A DNA stretch of 62,222 nt from a virus. Location of the stretch: positions 1 through 62,222 of the IMG/VR virus record IMGVR_UViG_3300009124_000012; one strand, written 5' to 3'. The position numbers and the translations under genes were made by a program. Below the pieces are notes generated by a model. That model was not told the DNA's origin and did not search any database. It saw only the letters and a list, made by a program, of their open reading frames with translations. How positions within the stretch are numbered: the stretch's first letter is position 1; each line of letters opens with the position of its first letter. Shown piece by piece: positions 45,878 to 51,939 of this stretch.

Positions 45878-46740
45878 ATCGGTAGTAGGTTACCAAATGT
45901 TCTTCTATTTAATGCAAATTCTAATCTCTGCTCAGCATACTTCTGATTTACTTGAACAGTAGTGTGTGCAGTGTAAGGAAAAAGTCCCTCGTTACTAGTT
46001 ATAGTACCTGCAAAGAAAAATCTGAGTTTCTTGATTTCAGATGGTTTGTACGAAATTACATTGTTCGCCGCGTTGATATAACCCTGCATGATCTCAGGAC
46101 CCCATTGCTGCGCCGCAATTTGCGTAATAGGATAAAATGTATTGACATTTATACTACTACTCAGCGTTTTGGTCAGAGCGGAAAGCGCAAAGTTCCGCAA
46201 AATATTCGGAGAATCACTGTAACTAATACCCTCCGACGTAAATCTCATAATACCATTGTCGTATCCTAAAACCCACTCACGGTCATAGAAGTTCCTTTCA
46301 CTGAAATACCCCGAAATCGTTGCAACATTACCGAAACCTCCTATAACACTTACAGTAGGTTCCATAAACAACGGTGCTACCCAGTATGGTGACACAGAAA
46401 TATCCAACCCCTCCTCTGCCCCTGTTCGAGAAGGATCTGCCCCTGGCAATGGATCCTCTAATATACAGTGGGTCATGGAAAGAGCGTGATTGGTGATTAC
46501 CTCGCCTGGTAATGTTGGTATCGCCTCGACAGACATCGAAAACCCTTGATACGTTCCGATGAAATCATCACCACCAGTTAATTCACCATTCTTAATAGCA
46601 TTCGCAAGTGCCGTTGCCCCTAATCGTGGGAAGAACTCATAATCACCCTGTGACAATAACGATACTCCACCTATAGAACGTAGAGGTGGAACAATGTAGG
46701 GTATACCTACCTCATACTGGTCTACTAGCAGTGCTGCCAT
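45874..46740 (-). CDS. unknown baseplate-associated protein
   Basis: A 288-residue protein with no recognised family. It opens ALLVDQYEVGIPYIVPPLRS, contains a glycine-rich VSVIGGFGNVATISGYFSE in the middle, and ends in a helix with QKYAEQRLEFALNRR. There are no membrane or signal features. The 4-nt overlap with the PAAR gene suggests a hub or spike part. It shows no clear likeness to T4 gp48, gp53 or gp5, so I leave it unnamed. Confidence 0.65.
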   Translation of the reverse strand: MAALLVDQYEVGIPYIVPPLRSIGGVSLLSQGDYEFFPRLGATALANAIKNGELTGGDDFIGTYQGFSMSVEAIPTLPGEVITNHALSMTHCILEDPLPGADPSRTGAEEGLDISVSPYWVAPLFMEPTVSVIGGFGNVATISGYFSERNFYDREWVLGYDNGIMRFTSEGISYSDSPNILRNFALSALTKTLSSSINVNTFYPITQIAAQQWGPEIMQGYINAANNVISYKPSEIKKLRFFFAGTITSNEGLFPYTAHTTVQVNQKYAEQRLEFALNRRTFGNLLPI

Positions 46741-46741
46741 A

Positions 46742-46948
46742 TCAGCGTAACGCTAAGTTCCTCACAGCACCTTTCAATCCTTCCACATTATTATGCAAAT
46801 AATCTAAAGTATTTGCTACACTTTCATAATCTTCGCTTTCTGGACGCTTATACATTAATTTGAAAGGTATTGGAAGCTGTTCGACCTGGCGTTCCAGCGT
46901 CTCAATCCTACTCTCCAAGGAATTCAGTTTCTGTAATATCTCTTCCAT
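46742..46948 (-). CDS. small coiled-coil protein
   Basis: A 68-residue protein with a strong N-terminal coiled coil (EEILQKLNSLESRIETLERQ) and a second helix at the C-terminus. It overlaps the 76-residue gene upstream by 41 nt in another frame. Probably an oligomeric assembly or chaperone-like part of the baseplate module; function unknown. Confidence 0.65.
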   Translation of the reverse strand: MEEILQKLNSLESRIETLERQVEQLPIPFKLMYKRPESEDYESVANTLDYLHNNVEGLKGAVRNLALR

Positions 46949-47138
46949 TTGTCACTCGCTCCTGTTTGATAATTTGATCGTTATAAATGGTCTCTACATT
47001 ATACTGAGGTGTATCGACACCATGAGCATAATAGTCTAGTGCTAAATCCTGTACACTATCGGCAAACTCGTTGAAATCATCAAAGAGTTGCTCTTTAAGA
47101 GTACCATCCTTAGTTTTGTGTGTAAGTTTGTGTTTCAT
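46908..47138 (-). CDS. small unknown protein opening the hub module
   Basis: A 76-residue acidic protein (KDGTLKEQLFDDFNEFADSV, then LALDYYAHGVD). No motif recognised. It is the first gene after a ~190-base gap that holds a late-type ATAAATA (47204-47210), so it probably heads the hub/PAAR transcript. Its 3' end overlaps the coiled-coil gene by 41 nt. Confidence 0.65.
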   Translation of the reverse strand: MKHKLTHKTKDGTLKEQLFDDFNEFADSVQDLALDYYAHGVDTPQYNVETIYNDQIIKQERVTNGRDITETEFLGE

Positions 47139-47203
47139 CTTGAAAGACCTTTTTGGGCAATTTTTACCTGGGGAAATTTTTTTATATAGAGGGACCCGTT
47201 AAA

Positions 47204-47210
47204 TATTTAT
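47204..47210 (-). promoter_or_regulatory. late promoter candidate ATAAATA
   Basis: ATAAATA on the minus strand, 65 bases upstream of the ATG at 47138, in an A/T-rich stretch. Two copies of GAGGGACCC flank it (near 47189 and 47238). The leader is longer than at other late promoters. Confidence 0.4.
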
Positions 47211-47276
47211 CGCTCGTCTGGAAACGTTTGTAGGTTAGAGGGACCCTTCGATTTTCGCTTGGCGCTTCGCCCCATA

Positions 47277-47304
47277 CAAAAAAGGGGGCAACTAACTGCC
47301 CCCT
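47277..47304 (-). terminator. rho-independent terminator
   Basis: A 7-bp G/C stem (47284-47290 with 47297-47303), a 6-base loop, then a T run on the minus strand. It lies 23 bases past the stop of the nuclease-like gene and ends the early transcript before the late module. Confidence 0.88.
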
Positions 47305-47326
47305 AGTACATCTGTGCTGCTGAGGG

Positions 47327-47929
47327 TCACAGACCCTTCTCTGCTAGGATGGGTGCGACGACCTCACGGAGGAAGGCGAAATACTCAGCAGAGGTGAACG
47401 GTGCTTGAATGCGAGCGAGCAGGTCATCCACACCCATGACGGTCATGCCCTTGCCCTCGTAGCGTGTGACCTCTGCCTGTGGGACAGTGGCAACGACAGG
47501 CACGAAGTAAGCAGCGATGCACCCACCCACTGCATCTGCCACTGCGTTGATCTTCTCGTTCGATGCCCTGATCTTCTCGCTGTCAAAGTTCAGGTTGCAC
47601 TTGCTTTCCAGGTAGTATGTGATGGAGGCGGGGTCGTTGGTGGAGAACAGGTGATCGATCTGCCGCTGACGGTTGCCCACGGTGATGAGGTTGCTATCCT
47701 CAATGAGGTTGGTCACGCTGCTGTCATCACTGAGCACCTTATTCCAGAACTGCTCGATACGCTCACCGAAGGCGATCAGGATGGAATGAGGGGAAACCCG
47801 ATTGTTCATACCCAAGGCAGAGAGGATGTGGGATTCAGTCTGCTTAGGGTTGATGGACATGATCAGGGGGAGCATGGTCTCCTCCAGGTAAGCGGCGCCG
47901 ATGGTGGTGGTGGTGAGGGTCACGGTCAT
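47327..47929 (-). CDS. PD-(D/E)xK nuclease-like protein
   Basis: A 200-residue protein. The centre has Gly55-Glu57 in FGERIEQFWN, Asp92 in RQIDHLF, and Glu108-Ser-Lys110 in YYLESKCNLNFDSEK. The arrangement E, D, ~15 residues, ExK, then N-x-(L/F)-D-S-E-K resembles type II restriction endonucleases of the PD-(D/E)xK fold. No methyltransferase is adjacent. The gene is G+C-rich and has a near-consensus sigma-70 promoter (47950-47978) and its own terminator, so it is a self-contained early unit. The target is unknown, and host DNA degradation or defence against other phages are possibilities. Confidence 0.6.
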   Translation of the reverse strand: MTVTLTTTTIGAAYLEETMLPLIMSINPKQTESHILSALGMNNRVSPHSILIAFGERIEQFWNKVLSDDSSVTNLIEDSNLITVGNRQRQIDHLFSTNDPASITYYLESKCNLNFDSEKIRASNEKINAVADAVGGCIAAYFVPVVATVPQAEVTRYEGKGMTVMGVDDLLARIQAPFTSAEYFAFLREVVAPILAEKGL

Positions 47930-47949
47930 GTGGTTGTGTCGTTGGTGAA

Positions 47950-47978
47950 ATTATAGAGGATCAGGGGACAGGAGTCAA
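47950..47978 (-). promoter_or_regulatory. sigma-70 type early promoter
   Basis: Minus strand TTGACT (47973-47978), a 17-base spacer, then a perfect TATAAT (47950-47955). The ATG follows 20 bases later after a CA-rich leader. The -35 box overlaps the stop codon of the upstream gene. It would be read by host RNA polymerase. Confidence 0.85.
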
Positions 47979-48175
47979 TCCCTGTCGCTGATGTTCCAGG
48001 TGCCATAGGTGCCCTGGTCGATAGGTTGCCCATCACGGAAGGCGGCACGGATGAGGGCACGGCGTCGCTCTTCCTGACGGAGGGTCTCCATATAGGATGC
48101 CATGGCAGACTGACAGATGGGGTCGTTGGCGGCAGTCTCGTTAACCAGGAAAGCGCCGTTGTGTTGTTTGATCAT
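47975..48175 (-). CDS. small unknown early protein
   Basis: A 66-residue protein from the ATG at 48175. The frame is open further upstream, but TATAAT (48182-48187) sits exactly six bases before this ATG, so the transcript should begin at or near it. The chain is helical with RQEERRRALIRAAFRDGQP near the C-terminus. Function unknown; G+C-rich like its neighbours. Confidence 0.6.
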   Translation of the reverse strand: MIKQHNGAFLVNETAANDPICQSAMASYMETLRQEERRRALIRAAFRDGQPIDQGTYGTWNISDRD

Positions 48176-48181
48176 GTGCTT

Positions 48182-48187
48182 ATTATA
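48182..48187 (-). promoter_or_regulatory. TATAAT box, leaderless promoter candidate
   Basis: TATAAT lies six bases upstream of the ATG at 48175, so the expected +1 falls on the start codon. The same TATAAT-N6-ATG arrangement occurs at 49828. No good -35 was found. Confidence 0.6.
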
Positions 48188-48207
48188 GGGGGTCAGGTGG
48201 GCAGATC

Positions 48208-48420
48208 TCAGGCAGCGGTGGACACCTCGTCCGCTGTCACACGAACCCACGCCATGGGGTCACCTTTGGTGGGACACTTCCAGATGATCATATCCTCTCC
48301 ATACTTTGCCAACCACACAGAGCACAGGCGATAGGCGTGATCCATGTTCGATGCCCAGTCGCAACCGTGAGGGTCAAAGGTGCCCCATGCTGAGGGTTGG
48401 ACTGCGATGGCGTGGGTCAT
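48208..48420 (-). CDS. small unknown early protein, Trp-rich
   Basis: A 70-residue protein with five Trp (HAIAVQPSAWGTFDP, HAYRLCSVWLAKYGEDMIIW). No known family. The leader before the ATG is nearly identical to that of the nuclease-like gene (TTCACCAACGACACAAC), preceded by TACAAT at 48443-48448. This suggests a duplicated promoter-leader unit. Confidence 0.6.
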   Translation of the reverse strand: MTHAIAVQPSAWGTFDPHGCDWASNMDHAYRLCSVWLAKYGEDMIIWKCPTKGDPMAWVRVTADEVSTAA

Positions 48421-48442
48421 GTGGTGTTGTGTCGTTGGTGAA

Positions 48443-48448
48443 ATTGTA
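48443..48448 (-). promoter_or_regulatory. -10 box TACAAT with shared CA-rich leader
   Basis: TACAAT 22 bases before the ATG at 48420, followed by TTCACCAACGACACAAC, the same leader as at the promoter of the nuclease-like gene. A run of nine G just upstream is unusual. Confidence 0.55.
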
Positions 48449-48468
48449 GCACGGGGGGGGGCGACCCC

Positions 48469-48741
48469 TTAGAGGTCTGCCATCATCTCATTCATCTCGT
48501 CTGCATCGATGGCGACGCTATCCCATGCCACGCCGTCGCCAGTCTTGACAAGGTGGCGTCCGATCTGCCCATCAGTCATGCAGCGCACGAACTTCTCCCA
48601 AGGGGTCTCGTCATCAGAGCAGAACTCCACACACGCCTTAGCGGTGTTGTAGAGGAATTCATCGTTGCCGATCCAGAGGGAGGCATTCCAGGTCTCGTAG
48701 TTTGCCCAACCGTTGTAGGTGGTGTCGGTAGCGGTGCTCAT
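48469..48741 (-). CDS. small NGWxNYETW-family protein
   Basis: A 90-residue protein with the N-terminal signature YNGWANYETWNASLW, found in a family of short proteins on phages and plasmids (listed, as I recall, as DUF7249). The rest is acidic and ends DADEMNEMMADL. The family's role is not established. A TAGAAT box lies upstream, and an AAAGGA ribosome site is five bases before the ATG. Confidence 0.7.
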   Translation of the reverse strand: MSTATDTTYNGWANYETWNASLWIGNDEFLYNTAKACVEFCSDDETPWEKFVRCMTDGQIGRHLVKTGDGVAWDSVAIDADEMNEMMADL

Positions 48742-48789
48742 GTGTCCTTTGTTTGGTATGTGAGAATTCTACAGGGTCAGGGGTGCCGA

Positions 48790-48999
48790 TCAGGCGAGGC
48801 AGTGACGGTTTGCCCACTGTCCTTTGGAGGTGTCGCCGCTGAACCACAGCATCTTAAGGATCTCCCAGCGGTTAACGTGGGTGTGACGGTACTCCACCAG
48901 GCAACCCTTAAACCAGCGAACCCGAGCGGTGCCCGTGATGGGGTTCAGTCGCAAGGTCCAAACGCTGGTGCTGTCGTTGCAGTTGATGGGGAATCGCAT
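48790..48999 (-). CDS. KTSC-domain-like small protein
   Basis: A 69-residue protein whose pattern fits the KTSC domain: STSVWTLRLNP, then a strand ending RVRWFKGCLVEYRH and SKGQWANRH near the C-terminus (family: S..V, FxxGxxYxY, SxGxxxN). KTSC domains are short and often linked to RNA-binding or nucleic-acid proteins; the role here is unknown. Repeated ATTC units lie before the ATG. Confidence 0.6.
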   Translation of the reverse strand: MRFPINCNDSTSVWTLRLNPITGTARVRWFKGCLVEYRHTHVNRWEILKMLWFSGDTSKGQWANRHCLA

Positions 49000-49028
49000 G
49001 TGATTTAGTGAATGAATGAATAAGTGAA

Positions 49029-49199
49029 TTAGTCTCCCAATTCGATAACAGTATGTCCGAGGTAATCTTCAACCCAGACAGTGGAATTAGACTCACTATA
49101 CATCGAATAGGCAACATCGATAGCATGATCCTGAGAAGCACAATTCTCAGTTTCGTTGAGTGCTGGACAGTGAACTGTGTAGACCAAAATCGAACTCAT
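49029..49199 (-). CDS. small conserved cyanophage protein
   Basis: A 56-residue protein from the ATG at 49199 (SSILVYTVHCPALNETENC, then WVEDYLGHTVIEL). The frame stays open 32 codons further up, but that stretch contains one copy of the recurrent palindrome (49250-49275) found elsewhere only between or at the ends of genes, and GAAGGG lies before this ATG. I therefore use the short form. It resembles small cyanophage proteins of unknown function. Confidence 0.65.
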   Translation of the reverse strand: MSSILVYTVHCPALNETENCASQDHAIDVAYSMYSESNSTVWVEDYLGHTVIELGD

Positions 49200-49249
49200 T
49201 TCTTTGACCCTTCTACAATACACGATTTTGAGGTCTGTGCCGTGTGCTT

Positions 49250-49275
49250 GTGCCACTTTGACCAACTGTCCACTG
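49250..49275. repeat. recurrent palindrome, copy A
   Basis: An imperfect inverted repeat with TTTGACCAACTGTCCACTG. It belongs to the family that reads AGTGGACA...AAACTGTCCACT and lies upstream of the gene at 49029-49199. Function unknown; an operator or mRNA-processing hairpin is possible. Confidence 0.6.
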
Positions 49276-49329
49276 GCGGCTGACCTGGGTATCATTTAGT
49301 GATACCACAGTTAGTGTTAATTAGTGCCC

Positions 49330-49497
49330 CTAATTCTCCTCCCTCACAGTGTGAATGTGGAAGTTAGGATTGAGGCGCTGGCATGTCTCAATTGCCTCCT
49401 TTTTACTGGGGCTAATGTATGCTAACTCATCTCTCATTAACCAACCATTAGCACGTTCAAATCGTCCGCTGATAATGAATTTAGTCTCTTCAATCAT
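49330..49497 (-). CDS. small unknown protein
   Basis: A 55-residue protein from the ATG at 49497 (IEETKFIISGRFERANGWLM, then SPSKKEAIETCQRLNPNFHIH). Its ATG overlaps the stop of the 50-residue gene (ATGATTGA), so it is coupled. A strand-helix-strand pattern suggests a small ferredoxin-like or ribbon fold; function unknown. Confidence 0.65.
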   Translation of the reverse strand: MIEETKFIISGRFERANGWLMRDELAYISPSKKEAIETCQRLNPNFHIHTVREEN

Positions 49498-49642
49498 AGG
49501 GAAAGAATGCAGAACGGGTTGAATCTGTTGTGTAAGGAATATCAAAATCCTCACCAAACATTTGATAGTAGAACTCACTGAAGATAGCGAAATCGTCTGG
49601 CGTTTCGCTATTCCAGACCTTGAGAATTTCAGAGTACATCAT
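49490..49642 (-). CDS. 50-residue unknown protein
   Basis: An acidic, aromatic-rich 50-residue frame (SEILKVWNSETPDDFAIFSE, then YYQMFGEDFDIPYTTD). It starts on the stop of the 59-residue gene (TGATG) and overlaps the following gene by 8 nt, so three small genes form one coupled run. Confidence 0.6.
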   Translation of the reverse strand: MMYSEILKVWNSETPDDFAIFSEFYYQMFGEDFDIPYTTDSTRSAFFPYD

Positions 49643-49821
49643 CACTGATCAGCAAACATTCCGAAGTGTGCATCCAGCACGAAGTCCACCACGTCATCAG
49701 TGGCAGACACGTTGAAGCGGTCGCAGAACCAGTCCAGTGCCATGTCACCAGAGCACATGGTATCAAACATGAAATCTTGGAGTTCAGTCAGGCGATCAGT
49801 CATCAGTTCGTTTTGTGTCAT
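49642..49821 (-). CDS. 59-residue unknown acidic protein
   Basis: A frame of 59 codons and a stop (TQNELMTDRLTELQDFMFDT, then DWFCDRFNVSATDDVVDFVL). Helical, acidic, with two Cys. TATAAT lies six bases before the ATG, suggesting a leaderless message, and the next gene begins on its stop codon. Confidence 0.6.
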   Translation of the reverse strand: MTQNELMTDRLTELQDFMFDTMCSGDMALDWFCDRFNVSATDDVVDFVLDAHFGMFADQ

Positions 49822-49827
49822 GTAGAC

Positions 49828-49833
49828 ATTATA
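49828..49833 (-). promoter_or_regulatory. TATAAT box, leaderless promoter candidate
   Basis: TATAAT six bases before the ATG at 49821, the same spacing as at 48182. A palindrome copy lies about 30 bases further upstream. Confidence 0.6.
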
Positions 49834-49858
49834 GGCACAGGGTTTGGCGATCTGGGGT

Positions 49859-49900
49859 CAGTGGTGGACAGTCTGCCAACTGGTCAGGCAGCTGACCAGT
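49859..49900. repeat. recurrent palindrome, copy B, with extra 9-bp hairpin
   Basis: GTGGACAGTCTGCCAACTGG of the recurrent family, followed directly by a perfect 9-bp inverted repeat (49879-49887 with 49892-49900, loop 4). It lies directly after the stop of the 71-residue gene. Confidence 0.6.
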
Positions 49901-49905
49901 TTGTG

Positions 49906-50121
49906 TTACTTTGCGTCAGGAATGAGGTCGATCAATGTATCTTCATCATATAAATCTACGATCTCTTCAGTGATCTCATCCCATGTCATCTTTTCATACT
50001 CTCGTGTCAACAAATCGAAGAGCATTTGATCAGCAGATTTGTGATCCAAACCGTCGATAATATGCCAAGCATAGTTCTCAACGAGACCTTCGAGATCTTG
50101 CTGGTTTGGTGATGGTTGCAT
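49906..50121 (-). CDS. small acidic unknown protein
   Basis: A 71-residue protein from the ATG at 50121 (QPSPNQQDLEGLVENYAWHI, then a highly acidic TWDEITEEIVDLYDEDTLID). A longer form from a GTG at 50202 is possible, because that GTG overlaps the upstream stop. But the extension covers a degenerate palindrome (50181-50205) and a TATGAT box, so the short form is preferred. Function unknown. Confidence 0.6.
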   Translation of the reverse strand: MQPSPNQQDLEGLVENYAWHIIDGLDHKSADQMLFDLLTREYEKMTWDEITEEIVDLYDEDTLIDLIPDAK

Positions 50122-51134: not shown

Positions 51135-51160
51135 AGTGGACACTACAGAAACTGTCCACT
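51135..51160. repeat. recurrent palindrome, copy E (perfect arms)
   Basis: A perfect 8-bp inverted repeat, AGTGGACA (51135-51142) and TGTCCACT (51153-51160), around a 10-base loop. The best example of the family, in the gap before the 60-residue gene. Confidence 0.75.
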
Positions 51161-51178
51161 GATGTCACCAAATATTAG

Positions 51179-51382: not shown

Positions 51383-51613
51383 TTATTTAGATTCAGTCAC
51401 TAATTGACTGATTTTTTCTGTTTTGATTGCATTTGTAATGAATTTACCAATACTTTCTTCATTCTGAATAGTATTCTGTAAATCTTTTACAAAATCAGTA
51501 TCGATAACACTATAATTGTACAATTTATCAGAAGAATTAAACACAATACTAACTACTTCTTCTTTAATAGTTAATTCTTTAATTGCTGAAGACTTGAGAT
51601 TAGTGAAATTCAC
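51383..51613 (-). CDS. KTSC-domain protein
   Basis: A 76-residue protein starting at GTG. Its pattern is that of the KTSC domain: SSAIKELTIKEEVVSIVFNS, then LYNYSVI and a C-terminal ESIGKFITNAIK. The second KTSC-like protein in the window. Its leader follows the 22-bp inverted repeat (51649-51728), which may control it. Confidence 0.7.
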   Translation of the reverse strand: MNFTNLKSSAIKELTIKEEVVSIVFNSSDKLYNYSVIDTDFVKDLQNTIQNEESIGKFITNAIKTEKISQLVTESK

Positions 51614-51648
51614 AGTTTTTTAAAAAAATTAAAAGTTGAGTTTTTTAA

Positions 51649-51728
51649 GTTTTCTGAATTTCTCAAAATCTCAAAAAAGTGAAAAAGTGAAAAATAGCAA
51701 AAACACGATTTTGAGAAATTCAGAAAAC
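51649..51728. repeat. perfect 22-bp inverted repeat
   Basis: Arms 51649-51670 and 51707-51728 are exact reverse complements; the 36-base loop contains GTGAAAAA repeats. It ends 35 bases before the GTG of the KTSC gene. It lacks a T run right after the stem and so is not a simple terminator. It could form a long mRNA hairpin or a DNA cruciform. Confidence 0.85.
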
Positions 51729-51758: not shown

Positions 51759-51764
51759 ATTATA
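51759..51764 (-). promoter_or_regulatory. TATAAT box reading into the inverted repeat
   Basis: TATAAT on the minus strand, about 30 bases upstream of the 22-bp inverted repeat and 145 bases before the KTSC gene. No clear -35. It would transcribe the hairpin as a leader. Confidence 0.45.
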
Positions 51765-51897
51765 CTGTAGGTACTGAGACCCTCGGAGGACCTTTGTGCC
51801 ACCTTAGAGACTGTCATAGAGGCACTTGACAATCGATGCAGGGCGGGCTAAGACAACAACTCCTCCGCACCTTACCTATATTTTTTTAACCATTTCT

Positions 51898-51939
51898 TTT
51901 TCCACAGGTTTTTCCACAGAGTTTTCCACAATCTCCACA
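51898..51939 (+). promoter_or_regulatory. cluster of DnaA boxes (TTTTCCACA)
   Basis: Three exact TTTTCCACA boxes at 51898-51906, 51910-51918 and 51922-51930, each 12 bases apart, and a degenerate fourth (ATCTCCACA, 51931-51939). TTTTCCACA is the DnaA box reported for cyanobacteria. An A/T-rich tract lies immediately to the left, as in origins. Confidence 0.7.

What the first reader, a model, noticed from the sequence alone, without database searches (positions are those of the whole stretch)
51898..51939. Phased cyanobacterial DnaA boxes in a T4-like phage: a possible host-type origin
Three exact TTTTCCACA boxes stand 12 bases apart, with a degenerate fourth, beside an A/T-rich tract and a plus-strand TTGACA. 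T4-like phages do not normally use DnaA. If real, this phage may recruit host DnaA, either to start replication or to titrate it away from the host chromosome.
Basis: partly seen in the sequence, partly recalled or inferred. Interest (0 to 1): 0.8.

Follow-up and report, generated by a model that had tools for sequence, protein, structure and literature searches.

The report
DnaA-box origin-like site in T4-like cyanophages
Many T4-like viruses of marine cyanobacteria carry, once per genome in every complete genome checked for it, a conserved non-coding site, and in most genera examined it bears the host's DnaA replication-starter boxes, which suggests that these viruses borrow the host initiator, most likely to start copying their own DNA.

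Summary
Three exact TTTTCCACA boxes stand at 51898, 51910 and 51922; the "fourth" is a poor, unconserved match. They lie in a 361-nt intergenic element conserved across T4-like cyanophages (Kyanoviridae).

The element consists of an AT-rich hairpin, a palindrome, a TTGAC-N16-GCTAAGMC core, a T-tract and then the boxes. The core occurs once in each of six complete genomes scanned. Of 58 distinct core loci, 34 have a close DnaA-box pair within 220 nt to its right and 17 have one to its left. None has one further right, and reversed or shuffled 9-mers score about zero.

Box number, orientation and offset change between phages while the 9-mer is kept. Distances between parts change mostly in roughly 10-nt steps. 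Cyanobacterial oriC regions beside dnaN carry the same 12-bp tandem pairs. T4 oriE has no such boxes.

Best reading: a host-DnaA-binding site that serves as a phage replication origin (about 0.5). DnaA binding itself is much more likely (about 0.85). Rivals are DnaA control of divergent promoters, or DnaA titration. A clade including S-RSM4 lacks the boxes, so DnaA is not universally required. No paper found in the held library describes this.

The parts
51599..51679 (.). AT-rich, thermally least stable tract (candidate unwinding region)
   Evidence: Nearest-neighbour stability is at the 0.6 percentile of the window at 51600-51620; AT-rich tract conserved in relatives.
51649..51728 (.). Perfect 22-nt inverted repeat, arms 51649-51670 and 51707-51728 (hairpin or cruciform)
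   Evidence: single-strand DNA fold z = -6.2 in the window, -3.1 in Syn1, -4.9 in S-RIM32.
51759..51764 (-). Leftward -10-like TATAAT (candidate promoter for the minus-strand small genes)
   Evidence: Read from sequence; S-CAM1 and S-CAM3 carry TTGACA-N17-TATTAT here. No transcript data.
51795..51818 (.). Imperfect palindrome TGTGCCA-N10-TGTCATA
   Evidence: In relatives TGTGACA/TGTCACA and TGTGCCA/TGGCACA, i.e. paired changes.
51826..51873 (+). Conserved core: TTGACA 51826-51831, N17, TAAGAC 51849-51854 (promoter-like), then AACAACTCCTCCGCACCTT; faces the boxes
   Evidence: TTGAC stands 21 nt before GCTAAG in 53 of 60 loci; one copy in each of six complete genomes.
51874..51897 (.). Conserved T-rich tract ACCTATATTTTTTTAACCATTTCT next to the boxes
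   Evidence: T-tract and boxes stay together (gap 3 or 14-16 in most) while the distance to the core varies 29-102, mostly in ~10-nt steps.
51898..51906 (+). DnaA box 1 TTTTCCACA
   Evidence: Exact; conserved in relatives.
51910..51918 (+). DnaA box 2 TTTTCCACA
   Evidence: Exact; conserved in relatives.
51922..51930 (+). DnaA box 3 TTTTCCACA (inverted in S-PM2, S-RIM32 and S-CAM3)
   Evidence: Exact; orientation flips with the 9-mer kept.
51383..51613 (-). Flanking small gene, phrog_4357, unknown function
   Evidence: E 1.5e-23.

Best explanation
The boxes are binding sites for the host initiator DnaA. They form part of a conserved, single-copy, non-coding element that most likely acts as a replication origin of T4-like cyanophages. 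Proposed steps: (1) host RNA polymerase transcribes from the promoter-like core toward the boxes, making a non-coding RNA antisense to the neighbouring gene (inferred); (2) host DnaA binds the tandem or inverted boxes in helical phase next to the T-tract, sometimes also at a second set of boxes on the left (sites shown by sequence, binding inferred); (3) DnaA, the transcript or both open the A/T-rich DNA (inferred); (4) the phage gp41/gp59/gp61 primosome, or host DnaB, loads and the first round of replication starts (inferred from T4). Later replication would be recombination-dependent as in T4. A clade around S-RSM4 keeps the core but has other inverted repeats in place of the boxes, so DnaA looks like an exchangeable module.
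For: The 9-mer is exactly the cyanobacterial DnaA box: consensus in Synechococcus PCC 7942, confirmed in Anabaena 7120, DNase I and EMSA with Cyanothece DnaA domain IV (PMC4674748). Tandem pairs with 12-bp offset occur in 88 of 390 Cyanobacteriia genomes, with 0 for the reversed control. Most of the fetched host loci lie in box arrays, many near a dnaN start motif, one confirmed as dnaN by Pfam. In 58 core loci, close DnaA-box pairs occur at the core in 34, to the left in 17 and to the right beyond 220 nt in 0; the reversed 9-mer gives 0/0/0 and shuffled 9-mers about 0. Close box pairs are nearly unique to this site in Syn9, Syn19, S-PM2 and Syn1. Boxes flip orientation and change offset while the 9-mer is kept. 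Part distances vary mostly by helical turns. The core is single-copy in six complete genomes. DSL-LC03 has 8 boxes (one with a mismatch) in one 605-nt gap. A review reports a single theta origin predicted for Syn9 (PMC2984593).
Against: No binding, transcript or replication-start data were available. S-RSM4, S-H9-1, S-WAM2 and ACG-2014e/j/h lack boxes at the core, and P-SSM2, S-SSM7, S-CRM01 and P-HM1 show no cluster. GC skew shows no switch at the element. The -10 (TAAGMC) is a poor sigma-70 match. The least stable DNA lies about 220 nt left of the boxes, not beside them. Two or three boxes are fewer than most host oriC loci seen here hold.
Confidence: 0.5

Rival explanations
1. DnaA acts here as a transcription regulator. 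The element is a control region between two divergent promoters, and host DnaA tunes early phage transcription according to host growth or light state.
For: The region holds a leftward -10/-35 (TTGACA-N17-TATTAT in S-CAM1 and S-CAM3), a covarying palindrome and a rightward TTGAC-N17-TAAGMC motif. The boxes stand about 135-165 nt upstream of the leftward -10.
Against: The distance from core to boxes varies by tens of nt, unusual for a fixed promoter operator. The T-tract moves with the boxes. No coding gene lies downstream of the rightward motif. Box pairs can sit about 1 kb away.
Confidence: 0.24
2. DnaA titration: as phage DNA multiplies, the boxes soak up host DnaA and stop host chromosome initiation.
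For: The boxes are exact consensus sites, and several hundred phage genomes would supply many hundreds of boxes (inference).
Against: Titration needs neither one fixed place next to a conserved core and T-tract nor helical phasing, and dispersed boxes would serve. Isolated boxes elsewhere are at roughly chance level.
Confidence: 0.12
3. The 9-mers are sites for some other phage or host protein, or part of an RNA hairpin or terminator, and DnaA is not involved.
For: In some phages the boxes form inverted pairs that could fold. The box-less clade has other inverted repeats in the same place.
Against: Direct tandem copies cannot fold into a hairpin and are the commonest layout (28 of 43 close box neighbours are 12-bp direct). 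The sequence and 12-bp spacing are those of host oriC. No Rfam family matches.
Confidence: 0.12
4. Chance repeat or artefact of one contig.
For: None beyond the short length of the motif.
Against: Conserved in dozens of independent genomes and contigs, with controls near zero.
Confidence: 0.01

Closest known systems
Cyanobacterial chromosomal oriC (dnaN-linked DnaA-box cluster)
   Same: Same 9-mer TTTTCCACA and the same 12-bp tandem pairs; DnaA domain IV binds the box in Cyanothece (PMC4674748).
   Different: Phage site has 2-3 boxes (8 in DSL-LC03), no dnaN or dnaA known beside it, and a phage-specific core (TTGAC-N16-GCTAAGMC) and palindrome.
T4 oriF/oriG (R-loop origins: middle promoter plus A+T-rich unwinding element)
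   Same: Promoter-like motif followed by A/T-rich DNA in a T4-type phage whose replisome genes are conserved (PMC2984593).
   Different: The review of T4 origins (PMC3016281) does not mention DnaA; no shared sequence is known; R-loop not tested here.
T4 oriE
   Same: 12-bp-period direct repeats, early-type promoter, primer RNA antisense to the local gene, baseplate gene neighbourhood (PMC3016281).
   Different: The repeats found there are GTTGAAGGTAAT-like units inside gene 5, with no TTWTNCACA in the surrounding 10 kb. No sequence relation; repEA/repEB not sought here.
datA/DARS-type DnaA-binding loci of E. coli (from own knowledge)
   Same: A non-oriC cluster of DnaA boxes.
   Different: Known from the E. 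coli chromosome; the phage site sits in a conserved, promoter-like element. Titration was not tested.

Membership tests
DnaA-dependent replication origin | Cluster of at least two consensus DnaA boxes of the host's type | tested here: met
DnaA-dependent replication origin | Box spacing and helical phasing as in host oriC | tested here: met
   12-bp tandem offset dominant in both (28 phage, 41 host pairs). The host loci were fetched by that very spacing, so the host count is biased; opposite-strand offsets differ (13-14, 23-24 and 31 in phage; 18-20 in host).
DnaA-dependent replication origin | Adjacent low-stability unwinding region | tested here: inconclusive
   T-tract directly beside the boxes, but the least stable stretch is about 220 nt left.
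DnaA-dependent replication origin | DnaA binds and replication starts there | not testable with these tools
   Needs footprinting and nascent-strand mapping.
T4 R-loop origin (oriF/oriG type) | Promoter directed into an A+T-rich unwinding element | tested here: inconclusive
   TTGAC-N17-TAAGMC conserved, followed by the T-tract, but the -10 is weak; S-SM2 has a strong TTGACA-N17-TAGAAT instead. No MotA box sought.
T4 R-loop origin (oriF/oriG type) | Persistent R-loop primes the leading strand | not testable with these tools
   No transcript data.
T4 oriE | Iterons of the T4 sequence | tested here: not met
   Different sequence; no DnaA boxes in the T4 region.
T4 oriE | repEA/repEB initiator genes nearby | not tested
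   No search was made.
datA-type DnaA titration locus | Sequesters DnaA and delays host initiation | not testable with these tools
   Needs infection experiments.
tRNA genes (S-PM2 GenBank annotation over the element) | Cloverleaf tRNA detectable | tested here: not met
   ARAGORN finds none in S-PM2 or 11 relatives nor in the window.

The most novel reading that the evidence does not exclude
T4-like cyanophages evolved a hybrid origin: a promoter-linked T4-style start site onto which an exchangeable initiator module is docked. In most genera tested the module is the host's own DnaA system, so phage replication timing is coupled to host DnaA. In another clade the module has been swapped for another binding site (TTCTCAATA/TATTGAGAA repeats).
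Probability: 0.35. Interest if true: 0.88.

Novelty: new variant of a known kind. Interest (0 to 1): 0.74.

Why it matters
T4-type phages are the model for replication that depends on phage proteins and promoter RNA, not on host DnaA. [quoted passage not shown] It would also give a direct molecular link between phage DNA replication and the host's own initiation system. The prediction is precise to a few dozen bases and can be tested in cultured pairs such as S-PM2 or Syn9 with Synechococcus.

Tried and rejected
Cumulative GC and TA skew (GC only for Syn9 and Syn19) of S-PM2, Syn1, S-RSM4, ACG-2014e, Syn9 and Syn19: raw GC skew is close to monotone and no switch marks the element. tRNA reading of the S-PM2 annotation rejected. 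Rfam search of the window: nothing at gathering cut-off. 'Fourth box' rejected. T4 oriE homology rejected by sequence. Weigele 2007 and the Syn9 transcriptome paper are not in the held library, so where the Syn9 theta origin was placed could not be compared. The whole-collection host scan for the tandem pair was too unspecific; the class-level scan replaced it. In picocyanobacteria only 7 of 61 genomes have direct pairs with gaps up to 16, so dense direct pairs are not the rule in the hosts' own family. Structure prediction was not used: the question is about DNA sites.

Full report
What is there. The window is an IMG/VR fragment of a T4-like cyanophage (Kyanoviridae; relatives, record type). 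Three exact TTTTCCACA boxes stand at 51898, 51910 and 51922, 12 bp start to start. Six exact copies in the window against 0.93 expected (no shuffle of 100 as high) come from this cluster plus three singles. One-mismatch copies are not in excess. The claimed fourth box is ATCTCCACA with two mismatches at a 9-bp offset and is not conserved.

Surroundings. The boxes lie in a 361-nt gap between minus-strand small genes, none with a known function. From left to right: an AT-rich tract among the least stable stretches of the window (51599-51679); a perfect 22-nt inverted repeat (fold z -6.2, and -3.1 and -4.9 in two relatives); a leftward -10 (TATAAT on the minus strand at 51759-51764); an imperfect palindrome TGTGCCA-N10-TGTCATA; TTGACA-N17-TAAGAC (51826-51854); a conserved stretch AACAACTCCTCCGCACCTT; a T-tract (51874-51897); the boxes.

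Conservation. BLAST finds the element in 35 phage records from the window's own sequence, and in 29, 33 and 144 records from diverged copies, all cyanophages. Box clusters at the element were read in Syn1 and S-RIM44 (Vellamovirus), S-RIM32 (Bristolvirus), S-PM2 (Nodensvirus), S-CAM3 (Charybdisvirus), S-CAM1 (Anaposvirus), Syn9 (Ormenosvirus), Syn19 (Pontusvirus), S-SM2 (Nilusvirus), P-SSM7 (Palaemonvirus), the Sf- phages and the freshwater phage DSL-LC03. TTGAC precedes GCTAAG by exactly 21 nt (start to start) in 53 of 60 loci. The core occurs once per genome in Syn9, Syn19, S-PM2, Syn1, S-RSM4 and ACG-2014e.

Are the boxes selected? I collected 58 distinct core loci, mostly without reference to boxes (core patterns; BLAST). 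The exceptions are the window itself and Syn9, Syn19 and S-SM2, which were reached through boxes. Thirty-four of 58 have a close pair of DnaA boxes (offset 9-40, at most one mismatch in the pair) within 220 nt to the right of the core, 17 have one to the left, and none further right (two false core matches removed). The reversed 9-mer gives 0, 0, 0, and about 40 shuffled 9-mers average 0, 0 and 0.05. Scans of 23 complete phage genomes show exact-box clusters only at or near the element, and isolated boxes at roughly chance numbers. In Syn9, Syn19, S-PM2 and Syn1 most close pairs genome-wide are there.

What changes and what stays. The third box is inverted in S-PM2, S-RIM32 and S-CAM3. Other phages have inverted pairs 13-14 or 23-24 bp apart. 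The distance from core to T-tract takes values near 29, 39, 49, 59, 69, 72 and 102, and from T-tract to first box mostly 3 or 14-16. The inserts look like 10-bp-period repeats. Keeping the 9-mer while flipping it and moving it mostly by helical turns is what protein binding sites on DNA do. It does not fit a coding or RNA-hairpin explanation.

Link to the host. TTTTCCACA is the DnaA box of Synechococcus PCC 7942 and Anabaena 7120, and Cyanothece DnaA domain IV footprints on it (PMC4674748). In 88 of 390 Cyanobacteriia genomes the 12-bp tandem pair occurs, with none for the reversed control. Most of the fetched loci sit in box arrays, many near a dnaN start motif, including a genome of the picocyanobacterial family whose dnaN was confirmed by Pfam. 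In that family such pairs are rarer (7 of 61).

Counter-evidence. A clade including S-RSM4, S-H9-1, S-WAM2 and ACG-2014e/j/h keeps the core but has other inverted repeats, for example TTCTCAATA and TATTGAGAA, where the boxes should be. ACG-2014e still has a box pair about 1 kb to the left. DSL-LC03 carries both kinds of repeat. P-SSM2, S-SSM7, S-CRM01 and P-HM1 show no cluster. GC skew is uninformative.

Mechanism. Shown here: conserved single-copy element, DnaA-type boxes, phasing, promoter-like core. Inferred: DnaA binding, transcription toward the boxes, opening, primosome loading. The T4 analogy is a promoter directed into an A+T-rich unwinding element (oriF/oriG), or 12-nt repeats with an antisense primer (oriE) (PMC3016281). 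T4 oriE itself has no DnaA-like box within 10 kb and the repeats found there lie inside gene 5, so this is resemblance in logic, not membership. A review notes that a single theta origin was predicted for Syn9 (PMC2984593); its position could not be checked.

Literature. Searches of the held library for cyanophage with DnaA box or DnaA found no description of this element. The library lacks most subscription papers.

Verdict. Host DnaA binding is likely (about 0.85); origin function is the best single reading (about 0.5).

Noticed in passing
L374 (DSL-LC03, OR003938.1) 972-1576: Freshwater Synechococcus phage with 8 DnaA boxes (one with a mismatch) in two groups (5 and 3) inside one 605-nt intergenic gap, plus TTCTCAAT/TTATTGAGAA repeats: the most oriC-like example seen.
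   Followed up: partly
About 975 nt left of the core: L003 ~758-780, L004 747-768, L012 ~517-538: A second DnaA-box pair about 1 kb left of the core in Syn1, S-RIM44, S-RIM32, ACG-2014e and several contigs; the window lacks it but has a GTGGACA/TGTCCAC hairpin around 51135-51170.
   Followed up: partly
L010, L011, L371, L397 right of the core: Box-less phages carry repeats TTCTCAATA/TATTGAGAA (or close variants) in place of DnaA boxes, often with a further TTATTGATTCTCAATA-like copy some tens of nt on: possibly sites for another initiator or regulator.
   Followed up: partly
L009, L136, L005, L008 between core and T-tract: 10-bp-period repeats (ACATTACCNN or ACATTCTCTA) in varying copy number, in helical phase; unknown binding protein.
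   Followed up: partly
L007 (S-PM2 AJ630128.1 19177-19333): GenBank tRNA-Leu and tRNA-Asn annotated over the element are not found by ARAGORN and look spurious; so do Syn1_073 and Syn1_074, which lie inside the conserved non-coding element.
   Followed up: yes
window 46001-50000: G+C rises to 0.47-0.51 against about 0.38 for most of the window; possible recently acquired block of small genes.
   Followed up: no
L423 4927-5070 (T4 gene 5): The direct repeats found at T4 oriE are 24-nt-period repeats inside the gene 5 coding sequence, so they may be under protein-repeat rather than origin selection.
   Followed up: no
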